Of a stretch of 27,503 nt of DNA, positions 1 through 22,591 are shown piece after piece. Source of the stretch: a virus; IMG/VR virus record IMGVR_UViG_3300032287_001439, positions 1-27,503 of that record; one strand, written 5' to 3'. Below the pieces are notes generated by a model. The model had not been told where the DNA came from. It did not search any database and saw only the letters and a program-made list of their open reading frames with translations. A program made the position numbers and the translations under genes. Position 1 is the stretch's first letter. Every line of letters begins with the position of its first letter.

Positions 1-1397
1 AAATTAGCACCTGATTTTGTGTAAGGAATTGTGTATGTTGATATTCCTGTTGCAGCGCGTGTTGCTGTCACAATAAGGTTGCCGCCAGTTCCATCAGGCG
101 GCGTAATGTCATACGGGCCAGCAATATTGGCTGCTGATGCAGTCAAAAATTCAGCATTTGAAAACGATGCGTAAGTAGCTTGTAAGTCAGGGCCAACTTG
201 AAACGGCAATGTGACAAACGAATTGATGTTTACAACGTTTGACGACGTGGCCGCATTTACAAAATGGTAAGCCTTTGCCATGCCCAATTTGTTGATTACG
301 TTAAATCGGCCGGTAATAAATGCGGCTTGAGCACCAGCAGCCAAAATGCAAGGGACAGTCGTATTTGGTGGCACAAAATAATTGTGCGACACATCAACGT
401 ATGAGCAACTGCCAGTGCCGCCATCACCAAGGACAACGCCACCAATAGAACATCCAACCAATGTGTTTTCACTAATCGTAATGCCACCAGTATCACCAGT
501 AATACGCACCCCATAAGGGCTTGCCGTTACAACGTTGCTAGAAATAATGATGTTGCCAGGCTCTCCGTTGATGCGGTTTACTGTAATTCCAAGATCGCAA
601 ATTGTGACTGTATTTCCTGTCACAACTCCTTGAACAACTGTTTCGCAAAAAATGCCAACCAATCCATCAAAAACGGTGTTTCCCGTAATGGTGAAATTTA
701 AACCATTGCATACTGTCGTTCCTTTTTCGCCATAAATATCAATGCAATTGTCACCAGTTCCATAAACGTAATTGTTAGAAATAATCAATCCGTTAAATTG
801 AGAACATTGAATGCCAATCGTGTTGCAATCGCCAACACTGCAATTGGTTATTTTTATGTTTGCCGCCGCTACTGTTGGTGTGCCGCGAATCAGCATACCG
901 TTGCCATTTGCGTTTATTGACGCAACGCCGTTAACTTCTATGCTTCCTAAAACCTCCAGCAACATATTGTCACATTGAGCGCTTACGACTTGATTTGCTT
1001 TGTTGCCATCCAATTTTAAATTTGAAATTCTTGAATTCTGCAATCTAGTCACATCACGCGATGAAATCATGCGATAAAAAGCGCCACCGCCATATGCGTT
1101 ATCTTTAACTTTTAAAATTGATGATGTGCCATCTCCATAAAGAGATACATTATTGAATAGTTTTAAACTGGTAATTCCATATACAGAACCAGTATCAGTA
1201 ACATAATTTACAACATCAAGCAAAAATGTGCCTGTTGGAATGTAAACAGCGCCACCACCAGCGGCTAAAGCGGCATCAATAGCGGCTTGAATAGCGGCTT
1301 GATTAGTGGCTGGTGATGCCGTGGTTGATGCGCCAAAATCCAAGATGTTATAGGTTGCCCCTTGAATCATGGAGTAAGAAACTTTGGTCAATGCCAT
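1..1397 (-). CDS. Beta-helix tailspike / tail fibre, C-terminus cut by window edge
   Basis: I translated this frame by hand: it opens at ATG 1397 and stays open for 465 codons to position 1, so the gene continues beyond the window. The N-terminus (MALTKVSYSMIQGATYNILDFGA) is the usual entry of pectate-lyase-type right-handed beta-helix phage proteins, followed by AIQAAIDAALAAGGGAVYIPTG. After that come short repeating beta-rungs rich in N, G, V, I and T, such as ISNNYVYGTGDNCIDIYG and ITGNTVFDGLVGIF. These suggest a trimeric receptor-binding or glycan-degrading spike. It has no head-binding domain of its own; that sits in a separate gene at 2476-2967. The gap to the upstream gene is one base, so translation is probably coupled. 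Fold call is firm; substrate and enzymatic activity are unknown. Confidence 0.85.
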   Translation of the reverse strand, partial: MALTKVSYSMIQGATYNILDFGASTTASPATNQAAIQAAIDAALAAGGGAVYIPTGTFLLDVVNYVTDTGSVYGITSLKLFNNVSLYGDGTSSILKVKDNAYGGGAFYRMISSRDVTRLQNSRISNLKLDGNKANQVVSAQCDNMLLEVLGSIEVNGVASINANGNGMLIRGTPTVAAANIKITNCSVGDCNTIGIQCSQFNGLIISNNYVYGTGDNCIDIYGEKGTTVCNGLNFTITGNTVFDGLVGIFCETVVQGVVTGNTVTICDLGITVNRINGEPGNIIISSNVVTASPYGVRITGDTGGITISENTLVGCSIGGVVLGDGGTGSCSYVDVSHNYFVPPNTTVPCILAAGAQAAFITGRFNVINKLGMAKAYHFVNAATSSNVVNINSFVTLPFQVGPDLQATYASFSNAEFLTASAANIAGPYDITPPDGTGGNLIVTATRAATGISTYTIPYTKSGAN

Positions 1398-2475: not shown

Positions 2476-2967
2476 TCAGAATACAAATTCAATGATAGAG
2501 GTGAATGGTGGTGCTTGTGTGAATGTTACGTTACCAGCGGAAATGGTATATGTATTTTGATTTTGATACACACCATTGATGTAAATAAGACTTGGCACAA
2601 AGGAAACAGCAAACACAGTCTGTGTGCCAGTTCCAGTTGCATTGCTGAAAAGATTGCCAGTCGAACCAGGGAAAGCATTGCCGTTCAGCGAGGTATAGAC
2701 CACCGTGCCGTTCTTATTTTGAACTTGAATGGAGTAATTGCCATTGGTGTAAATGCGTGATGGTGTGCCTTGGTAGACTGGATAACCCCCACTTGTGCGG
2801 ATGGGTTGGACAGCAGTGATCGTTAGTGCTGAATCCCAATAGGCAACAATTGGGTTGGTGATCGGGTTTAGGTTGACAGTGCCAATCCAGATGTAACCAT
2901 CATCAAGCGGCTGTCCATCAGCATCCGCAAACGCTGGGTATGGTGGTTCTACTGATAGTGCGGACAT
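2476..2967 (-). CDS. P22 tailspike head-binding domain protein (adaptor)
   Basis: A 163-residue protein. Residues 8-95 match the P22 tailspike N-terminal head-binding family: YPAFADADGQPLDDGYIWIG, then NPIVAYWDSALTITAVQPIRT, GGYPVYQGTPSRIYT and YSIQVQNKNGTVVY. In P22 this domain attaches the tailspike to the tail machine. Residues about 105-163 form a second small beta module (PSLIYINGVYQNQNTYTIS, then FTQAPPFTSIIEF) seen in many phage fibre proteins. Unlike P22, the protein ends here without a beta-helix; the beta-helix is encoded two genes downstream. It is probably an adaptor linking the tail to separate fibre and spike subunits. The start ATG 2967 is preceded by AGGAG. Confidence 0.85.
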   Translation of the reverse strand: MSALSVEPPYPAFADADGQPLDDGYIWIGTVNLNPITNPIVAYWDSALTITAVQPIRTSGGYPVYQGTPSRIYTNGNYSIQVQNKNGTVVYTSLNGNAFPGSTGNLFSNATGTGTQTVFAVSFVPSLIYINGVYQNQNTYTISAGNVTFTQAPPFTSIIEFVF

Positions 2968-18311: not shown

Positions 18312-19538
18312 CTACCAGCGTTTGACATTGGGCAATGGCGTGAATATAGCTGATTTCGTGACCGCTGTACGCCTGATGCCCTCACAGGCATATCGCAAGG
18401 CATCAATCACATGGTTCTTTTTGTCTTCAAGCTGGGGCAGGATTCGACCCGTCAATGGGTCTGATTTGTAGCTGTACAGGCTTAATTCGTCAATGGTGTG
18501 TATACAGCGAGGGTGAACCACGATGTCGTAATTCTTCAAAAACTCTACGCCTTCTTCCACTGATTTCGGCCCTTTAACCGCTGTCATGATCTTGGGAAAT
18601 CCATTGCGTTTCATGTGACTGATGGTCTCTGGTCGAGCTGAATCTGCAACGATTGGCCATTTTTCGGCCTCTGGCACTTGCATAAATAGTTCGGGCGTGT
18701 TAACGATCTCGCACCCTACCATATAAGCCTCATGATCGATGTAAAGTGTGCGCCCAATAATGTGGCATCTGACCAACACAGTCGGATCGACTGAGAATCC
18801 CCAGTCCGCACCCAGTCGGTGGATGGCATCTGATGGTGCATCGAATTCGTCAATCTTCCAGTTTCTGAATACCCTGCTGTTGCTGTTTCGCAGATACTGA
18901 CCCATCCAAACGTGCTGGTATTTGTCAGGGTCACGCCTTTTGTCATACTCCATTTCGTCCCGTAAGACATCAGGAAACCAAGGGTTTTCCCCAAAATTGA
19001 CTTTGATAACAGTAGCACTGTCTGGCGGTTCTGGCCCACGCAATAAAAAATCCACTGGGTCTGATTGATGGCGAGGGTTCCACGTGAACCACAGTTCGCT
19101 GTTGGGTTTGCGGATTGTTGGCCTCAACAGGTCAAGGCTGGTCTGGCTTAGTGACTGGGCTTCCTCAACCCAGGCGCAGTCGTAGCCTTCCAGCGACTTA
19201 ATTGAGTCGGCGGTGTGGTTCTGCATACCTTGGAAAATAATCGCCCCATCGCCCTTTTTGGACTTGATGACCGAATCCTGTACTTCAAAGTACGCGCCAG
19301 CATTCATAGCCTCAATCTTGGTCTCCAGCAGACGCTTGACGGATTGATTCAAAGATTTCTGTATCTCACGGACGCAAACGCTTCTGCGCCGTTGGTCGAG
19401 TATGTGCCCCTCAATCATTAACTCTGCCATCATGTGTGATTTTCCAGAACCTCGCCCACCCCACGCACCCTTGTATCGGCACGATTCCAGTAATGGCAAT
19501 GCCCATTCTGGAGTTTGTATTTGTAGGGTTTTATCCAT
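18312..19538 (-). CDS. Terminase large subunit
   Basis: 408 residues with both terminase domains. ATPase: Walker A GAWGGRGSGKS at 24-34, Walker B CAWVEEAQ at 121-128, and a coupling motif SELWFTWNP at 147-155. Nuclease: acidic residues in GADWGF (D245), VADSAR (D299) and HVIDALRY (D379), the RNase H-like triad. The pattern fits the PBSX/Terminase_3-like class. It drives DNA packaging into the procapsid through the portal and cuts the concatemer. The start overlaps the small-subunit stop by 8 bases. All key residues appear intact. Confidence 0.92.
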   Translation of the reverse strand: MDKTLQIQTPEWALPLLESCRYKGAWGGRGSGKSHMMAELMIEGHILDQRRRSVCVREIQKSLNQSVKRLLETKIEAMNAGAYFEVQDSVIKSKKGDGAIIFQGMQNHTADSIKSLEGYDCAWVEEAQSLSQTSLDLLRPTIRKPNSELWFTWNPRHQSDPVDFLLRGPEPPDSATVIKVNFGENPWFPDVLRDEMEYDKRRDPDKYQHVWMGQYLRNSNSRVFRNWKIDEFDAPSDAIHRLGADWGFSVDPTVLVRCHIIGRTLYIDHEAYMVGCEIVNTPELFMQVPEAEKWPIVADSARPETISHMKRNGFPKIMTAVKGPKSVEEGVEFLKNYDIVVHPRCIHTIDELSLYSYKSDPLTGRILPQLEDKKNHVIDALRYACEGIRRTAVTKSAIFTPLPNVKRW

Positions 19539-19944
19539 TTTTGATTACTACACGCTCAATCTTCGTGAATTCCAGCGGAACCCCATCTGCGCCAGTTACT
19601 TCATGCTTTTGTGTTTCTGCCCAACGCATCTGAGTTTTACTCCACCAGATTGCCGCAGTCGTATCGCCAGCCATCACCTTGCTGAAAAGGGTCTTGCCCA
19701 CTTGTGCGTTGGCTTTGGCTTTTCCTGATTGGAGTTCTGCGCTGAAATGCGCCCGTAGCGTGTCGATGTGTATGCCATCACGCACCAGTGCACCTATCTG
19801 GTCAATCGGTAACCCGTAACCAGACAAGGCTTCCACCTGTTTACGCTCGGCAACAGTTGGCTCAAAAGCTGGTCTCCCAGCCCCTGGTCGTGCGCCGCCA
19901 TTTGGACCGCGCTTTTTATATGTTGGTTTTTCAGTTTGCTTCAT
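19531..19944 (-). CDS. Terminase small subunit
   Basis: 137 residues. The basic N-terminus KKRGPNGGARPGAGRPAFEP is typical of small terminases and probably binds DNA. It is followed by a helix-turn-helix-like region (VEALSGYGLPIDQIGALVRD) and an oligomerisation helix (SGKAKANAQVGKTLFSKVMA), then GDTTAAIWWSKTQMRW, common in this family. It recognises the packaging site and recruits the large subunit, with which it overlaps by 8 bases. It starts three bases after the TET-like gene stop, so packaging and DNA modification genes are co-transcribed. Confidence 0.88.
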   Translation of the reverse strand: MKQTEKPTYKKRGPNGGARPGAGRPAFEPTVAERKQVEALSGYGLPIDQIGALVRDGIHIDTLRAHFSAELQSGKAKANAQVGKTLFSKVMAGDTTAAIWWSKTQMRWAETQKHEVTGADGVPLEFTKIERVVIKNG

Positions 19945-19947
19945 ATA

Positions 19948-20721
19948 TCACCAGTATGCGTTGAAAGCTTTGAGTGGATAGAATACCAAACTATTGCGAT
20001 ACCCACCCTCTGCTGTTGGGCGTATGGGCGTAACGCCATGTACATTGCGCCAAGCGGGATATACCAGCATTGAGTTATCCCTGCTGTCTACGGTTGCGCC
20101 GTAATCAGGAACTGTCGTGTTTCCGCCTCTTGCATTTTCCTTTTTTGCAATGATGACATTTACACATCCCTCTAAATTCCCTGCGTCTCTATGGAAAGGC
20201 GCAGGAATGTTGAAGTTGCTAATGCTAGATGTGAATAATTCCCCGAACCTAAACTTTGGAGGCACTTTTTCACTGATGATGCGCTTCTGTGTTGTGTAAA
20301 TTTCTGGTGTTATTTCTTGTATTAGCTTTTCTGATTCTTTGCACAGCATTAGCATCGCTTTGATAAATGTTTGCGCTGATTTAACCTGATGGACGCTTGA
20401 TATTGCAGGGTACGGGCGTTTCATATGTGGTTTTGGTGGGCATCCGCCCAAGATGGTGCTGTACTGTTTCACCTCAAATTCGCTATCCCGCATACCGCTT
20501 GAACGCCGCATCTCGCTTTTTGGAACTCTATCACTTAACAATTCAGAGTTGGCAACATTGGCTATTTGTTTAATTTTGCCTGTCAACTCCTTAATGTAAA
20601 AGCCTACGGGTTTGCCCTCAAACGTAAACAGCGTGTCCTCTGTGATGTTGGGTTCTATGTCGCCACATACGTCACCAATCTTCACGCTGTGCGATATCGG
20701 TTGTAGTTCGATTGTTTTCAT
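19948..20721 (-). CDS. TET/JBP-type 2-oxoglutarate/Fe(II) dioxygenase (5-methylcytosine oxidase)
   Basis: 257 residues. The double-stranded beta-helix signature is in the C-terminal third: FHRDAGN with Fe ligands H177 and D179, distal Fe ligand H228 in VHGVTPI, and R242 in YRNSLVFY for 2-oxoglutarate. N182, three residues after the Asp, and Y248, six after the Arg, occupy the spacing of the cytosine-reading Asn and the base-stacking Tyr in TET2, which points to TET/JBP rather than prolyl-hydroxylase or AlkB families. Family knowledge: these enzymes hydroxylate 5-methylcytosine (or thymine in JBP) in DNA. Context agrees: its start overlaps the TAGT-type glycosyltransferase by ATGA, next to ParB and terminase. 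The N-terminal 150 residues are less typical. The exact substrate is inferred. Confidence 0.85.
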   Translation of the reverse strand: MKTIELQPISHSVKIGDVCGDIEPNITEDTLFTFEGKPVGFYIKELTGKIKQIANVANSELLSDRVPKSEMRRSSGMRDSEFEVKQYSTILGGCPPKPHMKRPYPAISSVHQVKSAQTFIKAMLMLCKESEKLIQEITPEIYTTQKRIISEKVPPKFRFGELFTSSISNFNIPAPFHRDAGNLEGCVNVIIAKKENARGGNTTVPDYGATVDSRDNSMLVYPAWRNVHGVTPIRPTAEGGYRNSLVFYPLKAFNAYW

Positions 20722-21551
20722 ATCAGCCCCATTTTTTTCCTCATGCTGTTAATATTGCCGTCTGAGCCATATAGTCTGATGTGCGTTCCATATTCCCAAT
20801 TTGTTTTATGTGCAATTTTTACCAACGGGTCATATTTATTTGCGAGATAAGCACATTCTTTTTTTCGCTGGGCTAAACGTTCGGTTGTACTGCCAAACCC
20901 ACCCTCTGTATATCTCTCGAAATATGGCACGCACCAGTTTAAAACAAGAACATTTTTGTGACGCACTAAATTTTCTGCTGTCCAGGCTACATCATCAATT
21001 AATTGTGCATTTAGGTCAAATTTGTAACTGGATTTTTTTACAAGCCAAAATCTTCCGTCAGCCAGACCACGGGTTGTAAACTTATTGCACAGATTTTGTG
21101 GATTGTCGTGTAATCCAAATCCAATTAGATGGATGTTATTTTGCTCAGCCAATTCAATCAACTTTGGAAAGAAAGCAAACATTTCTTTTAGATTGATTTG
21201 ATTTTTACGTTTTAGCCTGTAAATCTCTTGATTCTGATATGTGATAGGTATTTTTTTTGTACTGCTAACAATATATTCTTTTGGGTAACTGTATATGCGT
21301 TTAAAATCATCACACATGTATACAGCCCACTCACCTGCATCCATCATATCTAGTGCGGTGTTGCGCTGATAGGCTAGGCCTTTGCCGTTTCCAGTTACAA
21401 CGGGATCGCCGTATATTGTTCCGCCCTTAACAAATTTGTTTAAATCATCGGTGCTGTGTATCAAAATATTGTGACTGATACCGCTCTCATGCAACGCTTT
21501 GGATGTGGTTGCCGTAGCGAATCTATTATAAAAAAATGTAAATACTTTCAC
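20718..21551 (-). CDS. TET-associated glycosyltransferase (TAGT-type)
   Basis: 277 residues, GT-A-like. GLAYQRNTALDMM (58-70) and YMCDDF (78-83) give the nucleotide-sugar site with a DxD-like acidic pair D81-D82. GRFWLVKK (166-173), QLIDDVAWTAENL (183-195) and YTEGGFGS (214-221) complete the pattern I know for TAGT/GREB1-like glycosyltransferases. Family knowledge: TAGT proteins are found next to phage TET enzymes and are proposed to add sugars to hydroxylated bases in DNA. Here it overlaps ParB upstream and TET downstream, each by ATGA. The gene is strikingly AT-rich (two sampled 60-base lines are 25% and 30% GC, against about 55% in terminase and coat lines), suggesting recent acquisition. 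Sugar donor unknown. Confidence 0.8.
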   Translation of the reverse strand: MKVFTFFYNRFATATTSKALHESGISHNILIHSTDDLNKFVKGGTIYGDPVVTGNGKGLAYQRNTALDMMDAGEWAVYMCDDFKRIYSYPKEYIVSSTKKIPITYQNQEIYRLKRKNQINLKEMFAFFPKLIELAEQNNIHLIGFGLHDNPQNLCNKFTTRGLADGRFWLVKKSSYKFDLNAQLIDDVAWTAENLVRHKNVLVLNWCVPYFERYTEGGFGSTTERLAQRKKECAYLANKYDPLVKIAHKTNWEYGTHIRLYGSDGNINSMRKKMGLI

Positions 21552-22153
21552 AGTTTCGCTTTTTCATTACGCAAGTGATTGATCATCATCATGCCAACAT
21601 AGGCTTTTCGCTCACGCCAAAACTTAACAAGTTCTTGGGCTTCTTCGTAATGTTCTGGCTCAAACTCAATTTGTATGGCTTTTCTGACTCCATCTGCCAT
21701 TTCTTCTAGCTGGTCATCAATATCTGCGCCATCCAATACAGAATAATCGACATCAGAATTACCAAATTCAGATGGGTCAAATCCGATTAATTCTAAGTTG
21801 AAACCCATTTCCCCAATCTCACCCAACTCCAAAGCCAGCATCACATTGTCCCAGCCAGCATTCAACGCAAGTTTGTTGTCAGCCAAAACATAAGCACGTT
21901 TCTTCGCTTCGCTCCAGCCCCTAGCCACCATAACAGGCACTTCAGTCATGCCCAGTTTTTGTGCCGCCAAAGTGCGCCCATGCCCTGCAATGATGCCGCC
22001 CTGTTCATCTACCAGCACTGGCGTTGTCCAGCCCCACTCCTTTATGCTTGCGGCAATCTGCCCAACTTGCTCATCGCTGTGGGTGCGTGCGTTTCTTGCA
22101 TACGGAATCAGTTTGCTTAATTTCCACTTTTCAACTTTATCTGCTGGGTTCAT
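21548..22153 (-). CDS. Stand-alone ParB/sulfiredoxin-like domain protein
   Basis: 201 residues. Residues 14-75 hold the ParB N-terminal domain: LIPYARNARTHSDEQVGQIA, then SIKEWGWTTPVLVDE and IIAGHGRTLAAQKLGM, with GHGR at 57-60. In many phages this domain is fused to a DNA methyltransferase; here the protein ends after a helical extension (KRAYVLADNKLALNAGWDNV), an acidic linker and a short tail, and no methylase motif (DPPY or PCQ) is present. ParB-like domains recur beside phage TET and terminase genes. It may bind DNA or nucleotides, or target the modification enzymes; that is inference. It is coupled by ATGA to genes on both sides. Confidence 0.85.
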   Translation of the reverse strand: MNPADKVEKWKLSKLIPYARNARTHSDEQVGQIAASIKEWGWTTPVLVDEQGGIIAGHGRTLAAQKLGMTEVPVMVARGWSEAKKRAYVLADNKLALNAGWDNVMLALELGEIGEMGFNLELIGFDPSEFGNSDVDYSVLDGADIDDQLEEMADGVRKAIQIEFEPEHYEEAQELVKFWRERKAYVGMMMINHLRNEKAKL

Positions 22154-22467
22154 GCTATCTCCGTTGGTTTAGGTACATTTACAGGCCAATCATTTTCCAG
22201 TGCTTTGACTGTGGCTTTATGTGCGTCAGTCCACAATTTCTGTCGTTCTTCTTTGCTTAATGTTTTGCCTTGGTCAATCTCGTAGTGGCATTTCAAGCAC
22301 AAAGCCGCCGTAAGGTTATCGTCAGCTTTTATGCCTCGCCCCTTACCGCCGCCCCAGTTTGTGTGTGCCGCTTGGACCATTTCACCACTTCCACAGGCTT
22401 GGCAATCAAGACTTGCGACCATTTTCAGGAGTTTTTTGCTTCTGACGTATTGATGTTTTTCGATCAA
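22150..22467 (-). CDS. HNH-like zinc protein with TTG start
   Basis: 105 residues from a TTG at 22467, chosen because GGAG lies seven bases upstream; the nearest ATG (22422) lacks a Shine-Dalgarno and would remove the basic KHQYVRSKKLLK segment. Metal ligands are C22 and C25 (DCQACG), H35 (QAAHTNWGGGKGRG) and C57, C60, H61 (LCLKCHYEID), an HNH/DUF968-like layout. Many phages carry such proteins beside RusA; roles in recombination or as nicking nucleases are suspected but not established. The gene overlaps the zinc-ribbon gene by 62 bases in another frame and the ParB gene by ATGA. Confidence 0.75.
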   Translation of the reverse strand: MIEKHQYVRSKKLLKMVASLDCQACGSGEMVQAAHTNWGGGKGRGIKADDNLTAALCLKCHYEIDQGKTLSKEERQKLWTDAHKATVKALENDWPVNVPKPTEIA

Positions 22468-22591
22468 CCATAGTCTCCAAAGTAGAAAATCTGTGCATAT
22501 TGGCGCATTCCAGTCTCCGTCTGCGTGTGTTTCCTGTTGATACTCGGGTCTCTTTGACGATTGTCCATGTGCCACATTCTGGGCATTTCAT
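22406..22591 (-). CDS. Small NrdR-like zinc-ribbon protein
   Basis: 61 residues from ATG 22591, which overlaps the upstream stop as ATGA; a longer open frame to 22639 lacks this coupling. MKCPECGTWTIVKETRVSTG followed by NTRRRRLECANMHRFSTLET resembles the zinc-ribbon half of NrdR, with C3, C6, C29 and H33 as likely ligands (His in place of the usual fourth Cys). The ATP-cone of NrdR is absent. Phages often encode such isolated ribbons; a transcriptional or nucleic-acid binding role is probable but unproven. Confidence 0.75.
   Translation of the reverse strand: MKCPECGTWTIVKETRVSTGNTRRRRLECANMHRFSTLETMVDRKTSIRQKQKTPENGRKS

What the first reader, a model, noticed from the sequence alone, without database searches (positions are those of the whole stretch)
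19948..22153. TET dioxygenase, TAGT glycosyltransferase and ParB cassette in a P22-like phage: probable glycosylated-cytosine DNA
Seen: three genes joined by ATGA overlaps between a recombination block and terminase, one with the TET/JBP HxD...H...R signature (H177, D179, H228, R242) and one with TAGT motifs (CDD at 80-82, TEGGFGS at 215-221). Known: phage TET enzymes oxidise 5-methylcytosine in DNA and are accompanied by glycosyltransferases that decorate the product. Inference: this phage makes glycosylated 5-hydroxymethylcytosine after replication, probably to evade restriction, coupled to packaging by co-transcription with terminase.
Basis: partly seen in the sequence, partly recalled or inferred. 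Interest (0 to 1): 0.9.

Follow-up and report, generated by a model that had tools for sequence, protein, structure and literature searches.

The report
Swappable phage thymine-decorating DNA cassette
A P22-like phage carries a small gene cassette, next to its DNA-packaging genes, that probably converts thymines in its own DNA into sugar-coated hydroxymethyluracil (like trypanosome "base J", not the glycosylated cytosine first proposed), and related phages carry the same cassette with the sugar-adding gene swapped for other decorating enzymes.

Summary
Three overlapping genes lie just upstream of terminase: ParB (21548-22153), a glycosyltransferase (20718-21551) and a TET/JBP dioxygenase (19948-20721). 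The TET passes the Pfam Tet_JBP cut-off and its fold matches TET2/NgTET1. The glycosyltransferase is TAGT-like, though by its relatives, its fold and a profile comparison rather than its own Pfam score.

About 95 related contigs share ParB-[slot]-TET, but the slot changes: this TAGT-like enzyme (34), an FkbM methyltransferase (28), kinase + amidotransferase + amino acid:DNA transferase (ADDT; 27), nucleotidyltransferase + HAD/kinase-like + TAGT (6), or an unassigned protein (1). TETs beside different slots are up to 96% identical. The slot type changed at least 11 times on the TET tree (parsimony).

ADDT and its kinase belong to thymidine hypermodification. No tested TET genome has thymidylate synthase (0 of 19), the usual source of 5-hydroxymethyl-dU, whereas 3 of 3 ADDT phages tested from the ViI family have it. 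A cytosine C5-methyltransferase is absent from 36 of 39 relatives, from all nine named TET phages and from the window. The likeliest substrate is therefore thymine, and the likeliest product glycosylated 5-hydroxymethyluracil, a base-J-like nucleoside reported as unseen in phages in 2019.

No chemistry was tested.

The parts
19948..20721 (-). TET/JBP-family 2-oxoglutarate/Fe(II) dioxygenase; predicted thymine hydroxylase acting on DNA (T to 5-hydroxymethyluracil)
   Evidence: Tet_JBP PF12851 36.6 bits > 34.9; fold TET2/NgTET1/CMD1/CcTet Z 10.6-12.6; H177, D179, H228, R242 invariant. Thymine as substrate is inferred.
20718..21551 (-). TAGT-like GT-A glycosyltransferase (slot gene); predicted to glycosylate the hydroxymethyl group
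   Evidence: 12 of 20 relatives match TAGT PF20691, one above cut-off; the window protein itself scores nothing; hhalign with TAGTs E 5.8e-5, probability 66%; AlphaFold pLDDT 90.7, GT-A neighbours Z 12-14; GC 37.8% against 46.6% for the window
21548..22153 (-). ParB_N-domain protein; predicted DNA-targeting or regulatory partner of the TET
   Evidence: ParB_N PF02195 28.3 bits > 26.3; directly upstream of the slot in 93 of 96 loci, the other three being cut; 73% identical over 129 aa to the ParB domain of a ParB-N6/N4-methyltransferase fusion at the same locus of a related phage
22150..22575 (-). HNH-like protein overlapping the ParB gene start; probably not part of the modification module
   Evidence: phrog_131 HNH endonuclease E 5e-25
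19531..19944 (-). terminase small subunit, 3 nt downstream of TET
   Evidence: phrog_309
18312..19538 (-). terminase large subunit
   Evidence: Terminase_3 PF04466, Terminase_3C PF17288

Best explanation
The genes form a post-replicative DNA hypermodification cassette, ParB-[slot]-TET, lying before the terminase. After replication the TET/JBP enzyme hydroxylates the 5-methyl group of selected thymines in phage DNA to 5-hydroxymethyluracil (inferred). The slot enzyme, here a TAGT-like GT-A glycosyltransferase, transfers a sugar from a host nucleotide-sugar to that hydroxyl, giving a base-J-like glycosyl-hydroxymethyluracil (inferred). ParB probably directs or loads the TET on DNA (inferred). 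Related phages exchange the slot for other enzymes that would cap the same hydroxyl: FkbM-type methyl transfer, phosphorylation plus amino-acid transfer, or a different TAGT with its own nucleotidyltransferase (the exchange is shown, the chemistry inferred). The likely benefit is escape from restriction or other DNA-sensing defence, with swapping giving new variants.
For: Family and fold. Conserved ParB-[slot]-TET order in 93 of 96 loci with five kinds of slot content, at least 11 slot changes on the TET tree by parsimony, DNA homology starting only inside TET when slots differ, low GC of the slot gene. Thymine: ADDT PF18724 and a P-loop kinase in the slot and beside the TETs of Tonitrus and CloverMinnie, and ADDT beside the TET of LilMcDreamy, a combination published for Tonitrus as thymidine hypermodification (PMC11955845); TETs with GT and ADDT slots up to 93% identical; no thymidylate synthase in 19 TET records including 10 that carry ADDT, against 3 of 3 in ADDT-bearing Ackermannviridae in which no TET was found; no C5-MTase in 36 of 39 relatives, 9 of 9 named phages and the window.
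Against: No nucleoside data exist. Phage TETs already tested oxidise 5mC (Burke 2021, from memory, not held). Hosts may supply 5mC: 54 of 200 Prochlorococcus-genus genomes have a C5-MTase, and one relative phage encodes one (L011-L013). No residue examined here distinguishes T from C, and the active-site strand of the TET model is poorly modelled. The window's glycosyltransferase alone misses the Pfam TAGT model. The window and most relatives are fragments.
Confidence: 0.68

Rival explanations
1. 5mC route: the TET oxidises 5-methylcytosine supplied by the host, or by an unsequenced phage methyltransferase, and the glycosyltransferase caps 5-hydroxymethylcytosine.
For: Characterised metavirome phage TETs are 5mC dioxygenases with glycosyltransferases (Burke 2021 PNAS, recalled; cited in PMC11404850). 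TAGT-like relatives match phrog_842, beta-glucosyl-HMC-alpha-glucosyltransferase. One relative phage has a C5-MTase. 27% of sampled Prochlorococcus-genus genomes have one.
Against: No C5-MTase in 12 of 13 relatives of 33 kb or more, in nine named TET phages or in the window; near-identical TETs work with ADDT/kinase, known only from thymine chemistry, in genomes without thymidylate synthase.
Confidence: 0.2
2. Dual or relaxed pyrimidine substrate: the TET accepts both T and 5mC and the slot enzyme caps whichever hydroxymethyl is made.
For: Slot swapping implies tolerance downstream; some TET-family enzymes are promiscuous (CcTet is solved with both 6mA and 5mC DNA).
Against: No direct evidence in this clade; 5mC is rarely phage-supplied.
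Confidence: 0.08
3. The glycosyltransferase modifies something other than DNA, such as the host surface (serotype conversion), and is adjacent by chance.
For: GT-A fold with cell-surface enzymes such as TarP among the closest matches.
Against: It lies between ParB and TET in 34 loci, where other phages carry DNA-hydroxymethyl-capping enzymes; relatives match TET-associated GT.
Confidence: 0.04

Closest known systems
Prochlorococcus phages P-HS2 / MED4-184 / MED4-117 cassette (CPAG_00033-35)
   Same: Same order ParB-slot-TET followed by terminase; TET 51.6% and ParB 41% identical
   Different: Slot holds an FkbM-type methyltransferase, not a glycosyltransferase; a phage with a different terminase and tail
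Actinophage TET cassettes (Rhodococcus phage Tonitrus, Gordonia CloverMinnie, Mycobacterium LilMcDreamy)
   Same: ParB then TET near the terminase with ADDT; kinase too in Tonitrus and CloverMinnie; no C5-MTase, no thymidylate synthase
   Different: TET about 26-30% identical; decorating genes lie mostly after the TET and no TAGT was detected
Phage 5mC-TET systems (Burke 2021, recalled)
   Same: TET/JBP domain, glycosyltransferase neighbours
   Different: Those come with a phage C5-MTase; this clade almost never does
Base J pathway (JBP1/2 + JGT) of kinetoplastids
   Same: Predicted logic: TET/JBP oxidises T in DNA, then a glycosyltransferase adds a sugar (description in PMC6449724)
   Different: Phage, ParB partner, swappable slot; sugar and product unproven; glucosylated 5hmdU stated as unreported in phages in 2019
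ViI-like (Ackermannviridae) thymidine hypermodification
   Same: ADDT in the alternative slot is homologous
   Different: They carry thymidylate synthase, the presumed nucleotide-level source of 5-hmdU, and no TET was found

Membership tests
TET/JBP dioxygenases | Tet_JBP domain above curated cut-off | tested here: met
   36.6 > 34.9 bits
TET/JBP dioxygenases | HxD...H Fe triad and 2OG-binding Arg | tested here: met
   H177, D179, H228, R242 invariant in 20 sequences
TET/JBP dioxygenases | double-stranded beta-helix fold closest to TET/NgTET1 | tested here: met
   Z 12.5 against FTO 9.7; model pLDDT 77, active-site strand 166-179 weak
TET/JBP dioxygenases | oxidises 5-methylpyrimidine in DNA | not testable with these tools
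   needs assay
TAGT (TET-associated glycosyltransferase, PF20691) | match to the family model | tested here: inconclusive
   window protein no hit; 12 of 20 relatives hit, L019 above cut-off; hhalign E 5.8e-5, probability 66%
TAGT (TET-associated glycosyltransferase, PF20691) | GT-A fold with acidic metal/nucleotide-sugar motif | tested here: met
   Z 12-14 to GT-A enzymes; D81-D82 invariant
TAGT (TET-associated glycosyltransferase, PF20691) | genomic link to TET | tested here: met
   adjacent to TET in 34 loci
5mC-TET phage system | co-occurring cytosine C5-methyltransferase | tested here: not met
   absent in the window (a fragment) and in 36 of 39 relatives
ADDT/kinase thymidine hypermodification | ADDT and kinase in this phage | tested here: not met
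   no ADDT in the window; present in sister cassettes
Base J pathway | glycosylated hydroxymethyluracil in DNA | not testable with these tools
   needs LC-MS
ParB partition proteins | ParB_N domain with helix-turn-helix DNA-binding part | tested here: inconclusive
   ParB_N met but TIGR00180 31 bits, under the cut-off of 58; closest relatives are ParB-methyltransferase fusions

The most novel reading that the evidence does not exclude
Phages make a base-J-type nucleoside (glycosyl-5-hydroxymethyluracil) post-replicatively with a thymine-specific TET, and they run a plug-in system in which a fixed ParB-TET pair creates a reactive handle on thymine while a single swappable slot decides which chemical group (sugar, methyl, amino acid) is hung on it.
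Probability: 0.5. Interest if true: 0.82.

Novelty: new variant of a known kind. Interest (0 to 1): 0.62.

Why it matters
Base J has been known only from kinetoplastids and their relatives, and a phage origin of TET/JBP enzymes has been a hypothesis. A compact phage cassette that should make the same kind of base gives a direct test. The slot exchange on near-identical TETs is a natural experiment: one oxidase, several caps. It predicts thymine as substrate, offers a genetic handle on how phages diversify DNA chemistry against defences, and would supply thymine-directed TET, glycosyl, methyl and aminoacyl enzymes as tools. It also corrects misleading database labels (queuine tRNA-ribosyltransferase, SNF2 DNA repair protein, DNA methylase).

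Tried and rejected
Glycosyltransferase against named phages by tblastn: no match in 50,697 records, so in the collections searched it is known only from metagenome contigs. PDB sequence search with the glycosyltransferase profile: only chance hits; with the TET profile: TET2 at E 0.015. Host argument (does the Prochlorococcus host of P-HS2 lack any C5-MTase?): MED4 itself could not be singled out and 54 of 200 genomes of the genus had one, so this was left as inconclusive. Looking for a 5mC-type TET clade as control with the S-CBWM1 TET returned only that phage. Key papers (Burke 2021; Iyer 2013; Lee 2018 and 2021) are not held, so statements resting on them are marked as recalled. The queuine tRNA-ribosyltransferase label of phrog_6059 was rejected: the protein is a Tet_JBP by Pfam and fold. 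Partition function for ParB was set aside because its nearest relatives are ParB-methyltransferase fusions. PADLOC and NCBIfam give nothing for TET or GT.

Full report
1. Observation. The three ORFs are at the stated positions and strand and overlap by four bases: HNH/ParB ATGA, ParB/GT GTGA, GT/TET ATGA. The TET gene is followed 3 nt later by the terminase small subunit (phrog_309) and then the large subunit. The phage is P22-like: coat PF11651 282 bits, portal phrog_156, scaffold, tail accessory factor PF11650, stabilisation PF11134, tailspike head-binding, Erf; nearest portal 68% in an environmental 'P22-like' genome. The record is a 27.5 kb linear fragment, open at both ends.

2. TET. Tet_JBP 36.6 bits against a gathering score of 34.9. 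Fe ligands H177, D179, H228 and Arg R242 are invariant in 20 relatives, including a 29%-identical actinophage protein. AlphaFold model pLDDT 77; best structural matches are TET2, NgTET1, CMD1 and CcTet at Z 10.6-12.6, then FTO at 9.7. Membership of the TET/JBP family is established; its base preference is not.

3. Glycosyltransferase. The window protein has no Pfam, PHROG or named-phage match. Twelve of 20 aligned relatives match TAGT PF20691, one above cut-off, and the profile aligns with TAGTs that sit near TETs in S-CBWM1, DLP_6 and the L090/L094 slots over 206 columns, E 5.8e-5, probability 66%. The model (pLDDT 90.7) is a GT-A enzyme, Z 12-14 to family-2-like transferases, with D81-D82 invariant at the end of the expected strand. 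It is a divergent TAGT-like enzyme.

4. The cassette is modular. In about 95 relative contigs (68 distinct TET proteins in the tree) ParB is directly upstream of a slot that precedes TET; the three loci without ParB are cut. Slot contents (annotated): the window's GT type (34 records, counting the window); FkbM methyltransferase PF05050 (28); P-loop kinase + GATase_6 + ADDT PF18724 at 70 bits (27, some with a GNAT-like gene); nucleotidyltransferase-like + HAD/kinase-like + TAGT (6); an unassigned 294-aa protein (1). TET identity across slot types reaches 93% (GT-ADDT) and 96% (FkbM-ADDT). On the TET tree the slot type needs at least 11 changes where 4 is the minimum for five states; well-supported branches alone force four for the GT type. 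Between the window and ADDT-slot phages, DNA similarity (about 81%) begins about 30 nt inside the TET gene and no slot similarity is found. The slot gene has 37.8% GC in a 46.6% window. The exchange is therefore shown; its mechanism is not.

5. Which base? Three tests point to thymine. (a) No C5-MTase (PF00145) in the window, in 36 of 39 relatives (12 of 13 records of 33 kb or more, including one complete genome; the three hits look like copies of one phage), or in nine complete named TET phages. The search works: it finds the enzyme in 10 of 14 control genomes and in that one phage. (b) ADDT with a P-loop kinase is the machinery of thymidine hypermodification; the published annotation of Tonitrus (ParB, TET, ADDT-type protein, kinase) reads it so (PMC11955845), and ADDT lies beside TET in LilMcDreamy and CloverMinnie too. 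(c) The ADDT phages of the ViI family carry a thymidylate-synthase homologue and no TET was found in them (3 of 3; that they incorporate 5-hmdU at replication and modify it afterwards is from PMC6449724). TET phages carry no such homologue (0 of 19, 10 of them with ADDT). TET in place of thymidylate synthase as the source of hydroxymethyluracil is the simplest reading. Since the TETs next to GT slots are up to 93% identical to those next to ADDT slots, the same substrate is expected here.

6. Limits. These are genomic inferences. Host 5mC is not excluded: 54 of 200 Prochlorococcus-genus genomes have a C5-MTase. Biochemically proven phage TETs act on 5mC (recalled; paper not held). ADDT acting on a cytosine derivative has not been ruled out. 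The sugar donor is unknown.

7. ParB. The window's ParB is 73% identical over 129 residues to the N-terminal part of a ParB-N6/N4-methyltransferase fusion that occupies the same place, just before the small terminase gene, in a related P22-like phage. PADLOC likewise matches it to the N-terminus of a type II methyltransferase model. The same ParB module thus accompanies two unrelated DNA-modifying activities, which suggests a targeting or loading role. A ParB-annotated gene beside the TET extends to actinophages with TETs of about 26-30% identity, although those ParB proteins did not match the Pfam ParB model.

8. Verdict. TET plus TAGT in phages is known in outline. The interchangeable slot on a fixed ParB-TET pair, with the thymine inference it permits, makes this a new variant of a known kind. 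I found no prior description of it in the papers held, but the main papers of the field are not held.

Noticed in passing
L002 16431-17132; L049 9312-10004 and 26 further loci: Slot occupied by an FkbM methyltransferase, including in isolated Prochlorococcus phages P-HS2/MED4-184; predicts O-methylated hydroxymethyl bases, testable on an existing isolate.
   Followed up: partly
L090, L093, L094, L096-L098 slots: Three-gene slot: nucleotidyltransferase-like, HAD/kinase-like two-part protein, then a TAGT above the Pfam cut-off; looks like a phage making its own nucleotide-sugar for the DNA.
   Followed up: partly
L099 536-1420: A single 294-aa slot protein with no family match; perhaps a further type of glycosyltransferase.
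   Followed up: no
L035, L036, L039, L040, L089 slots: An extra gene of about 212 aa with weak GNAT acetyltransferase similarity is inserted in the ADDT-type slot; could acetylate the added amino group.
   Followed up: no
L011-L013 (G001 31678-32355): The only relative phage found with a C5-cytosine methyltransferase, about 4 kb from its TET; a useful exception for the substrate question.
   Followed up: no
L035, L036, L038, L040, L042, L058, L080, L083, L084, L088: Many relative contigs end about 430-550 nt after TET, in or just past an HNH gene; probably a physical (cos) genome end between the cassette and terminase.
   Followed up: partly
public annotation: phrog_6059, NC_020847 CPAG_00033/35, KF301602, KU682439, MG450654: Phage TETs are labelled 'queuine tRNA-ribosyltransferase' or 'SNF2 DNA repair protein', and the lone ParB is labelled 'DNA methylase' although no methylase domain was found in it.
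   Followed up: yes
window 3-1397 and 2476-2967 (-): Truncated right-handed beta-helix protein (possible tailspike) and a separate small P22 head-binding-like protein.
   Followed up: no
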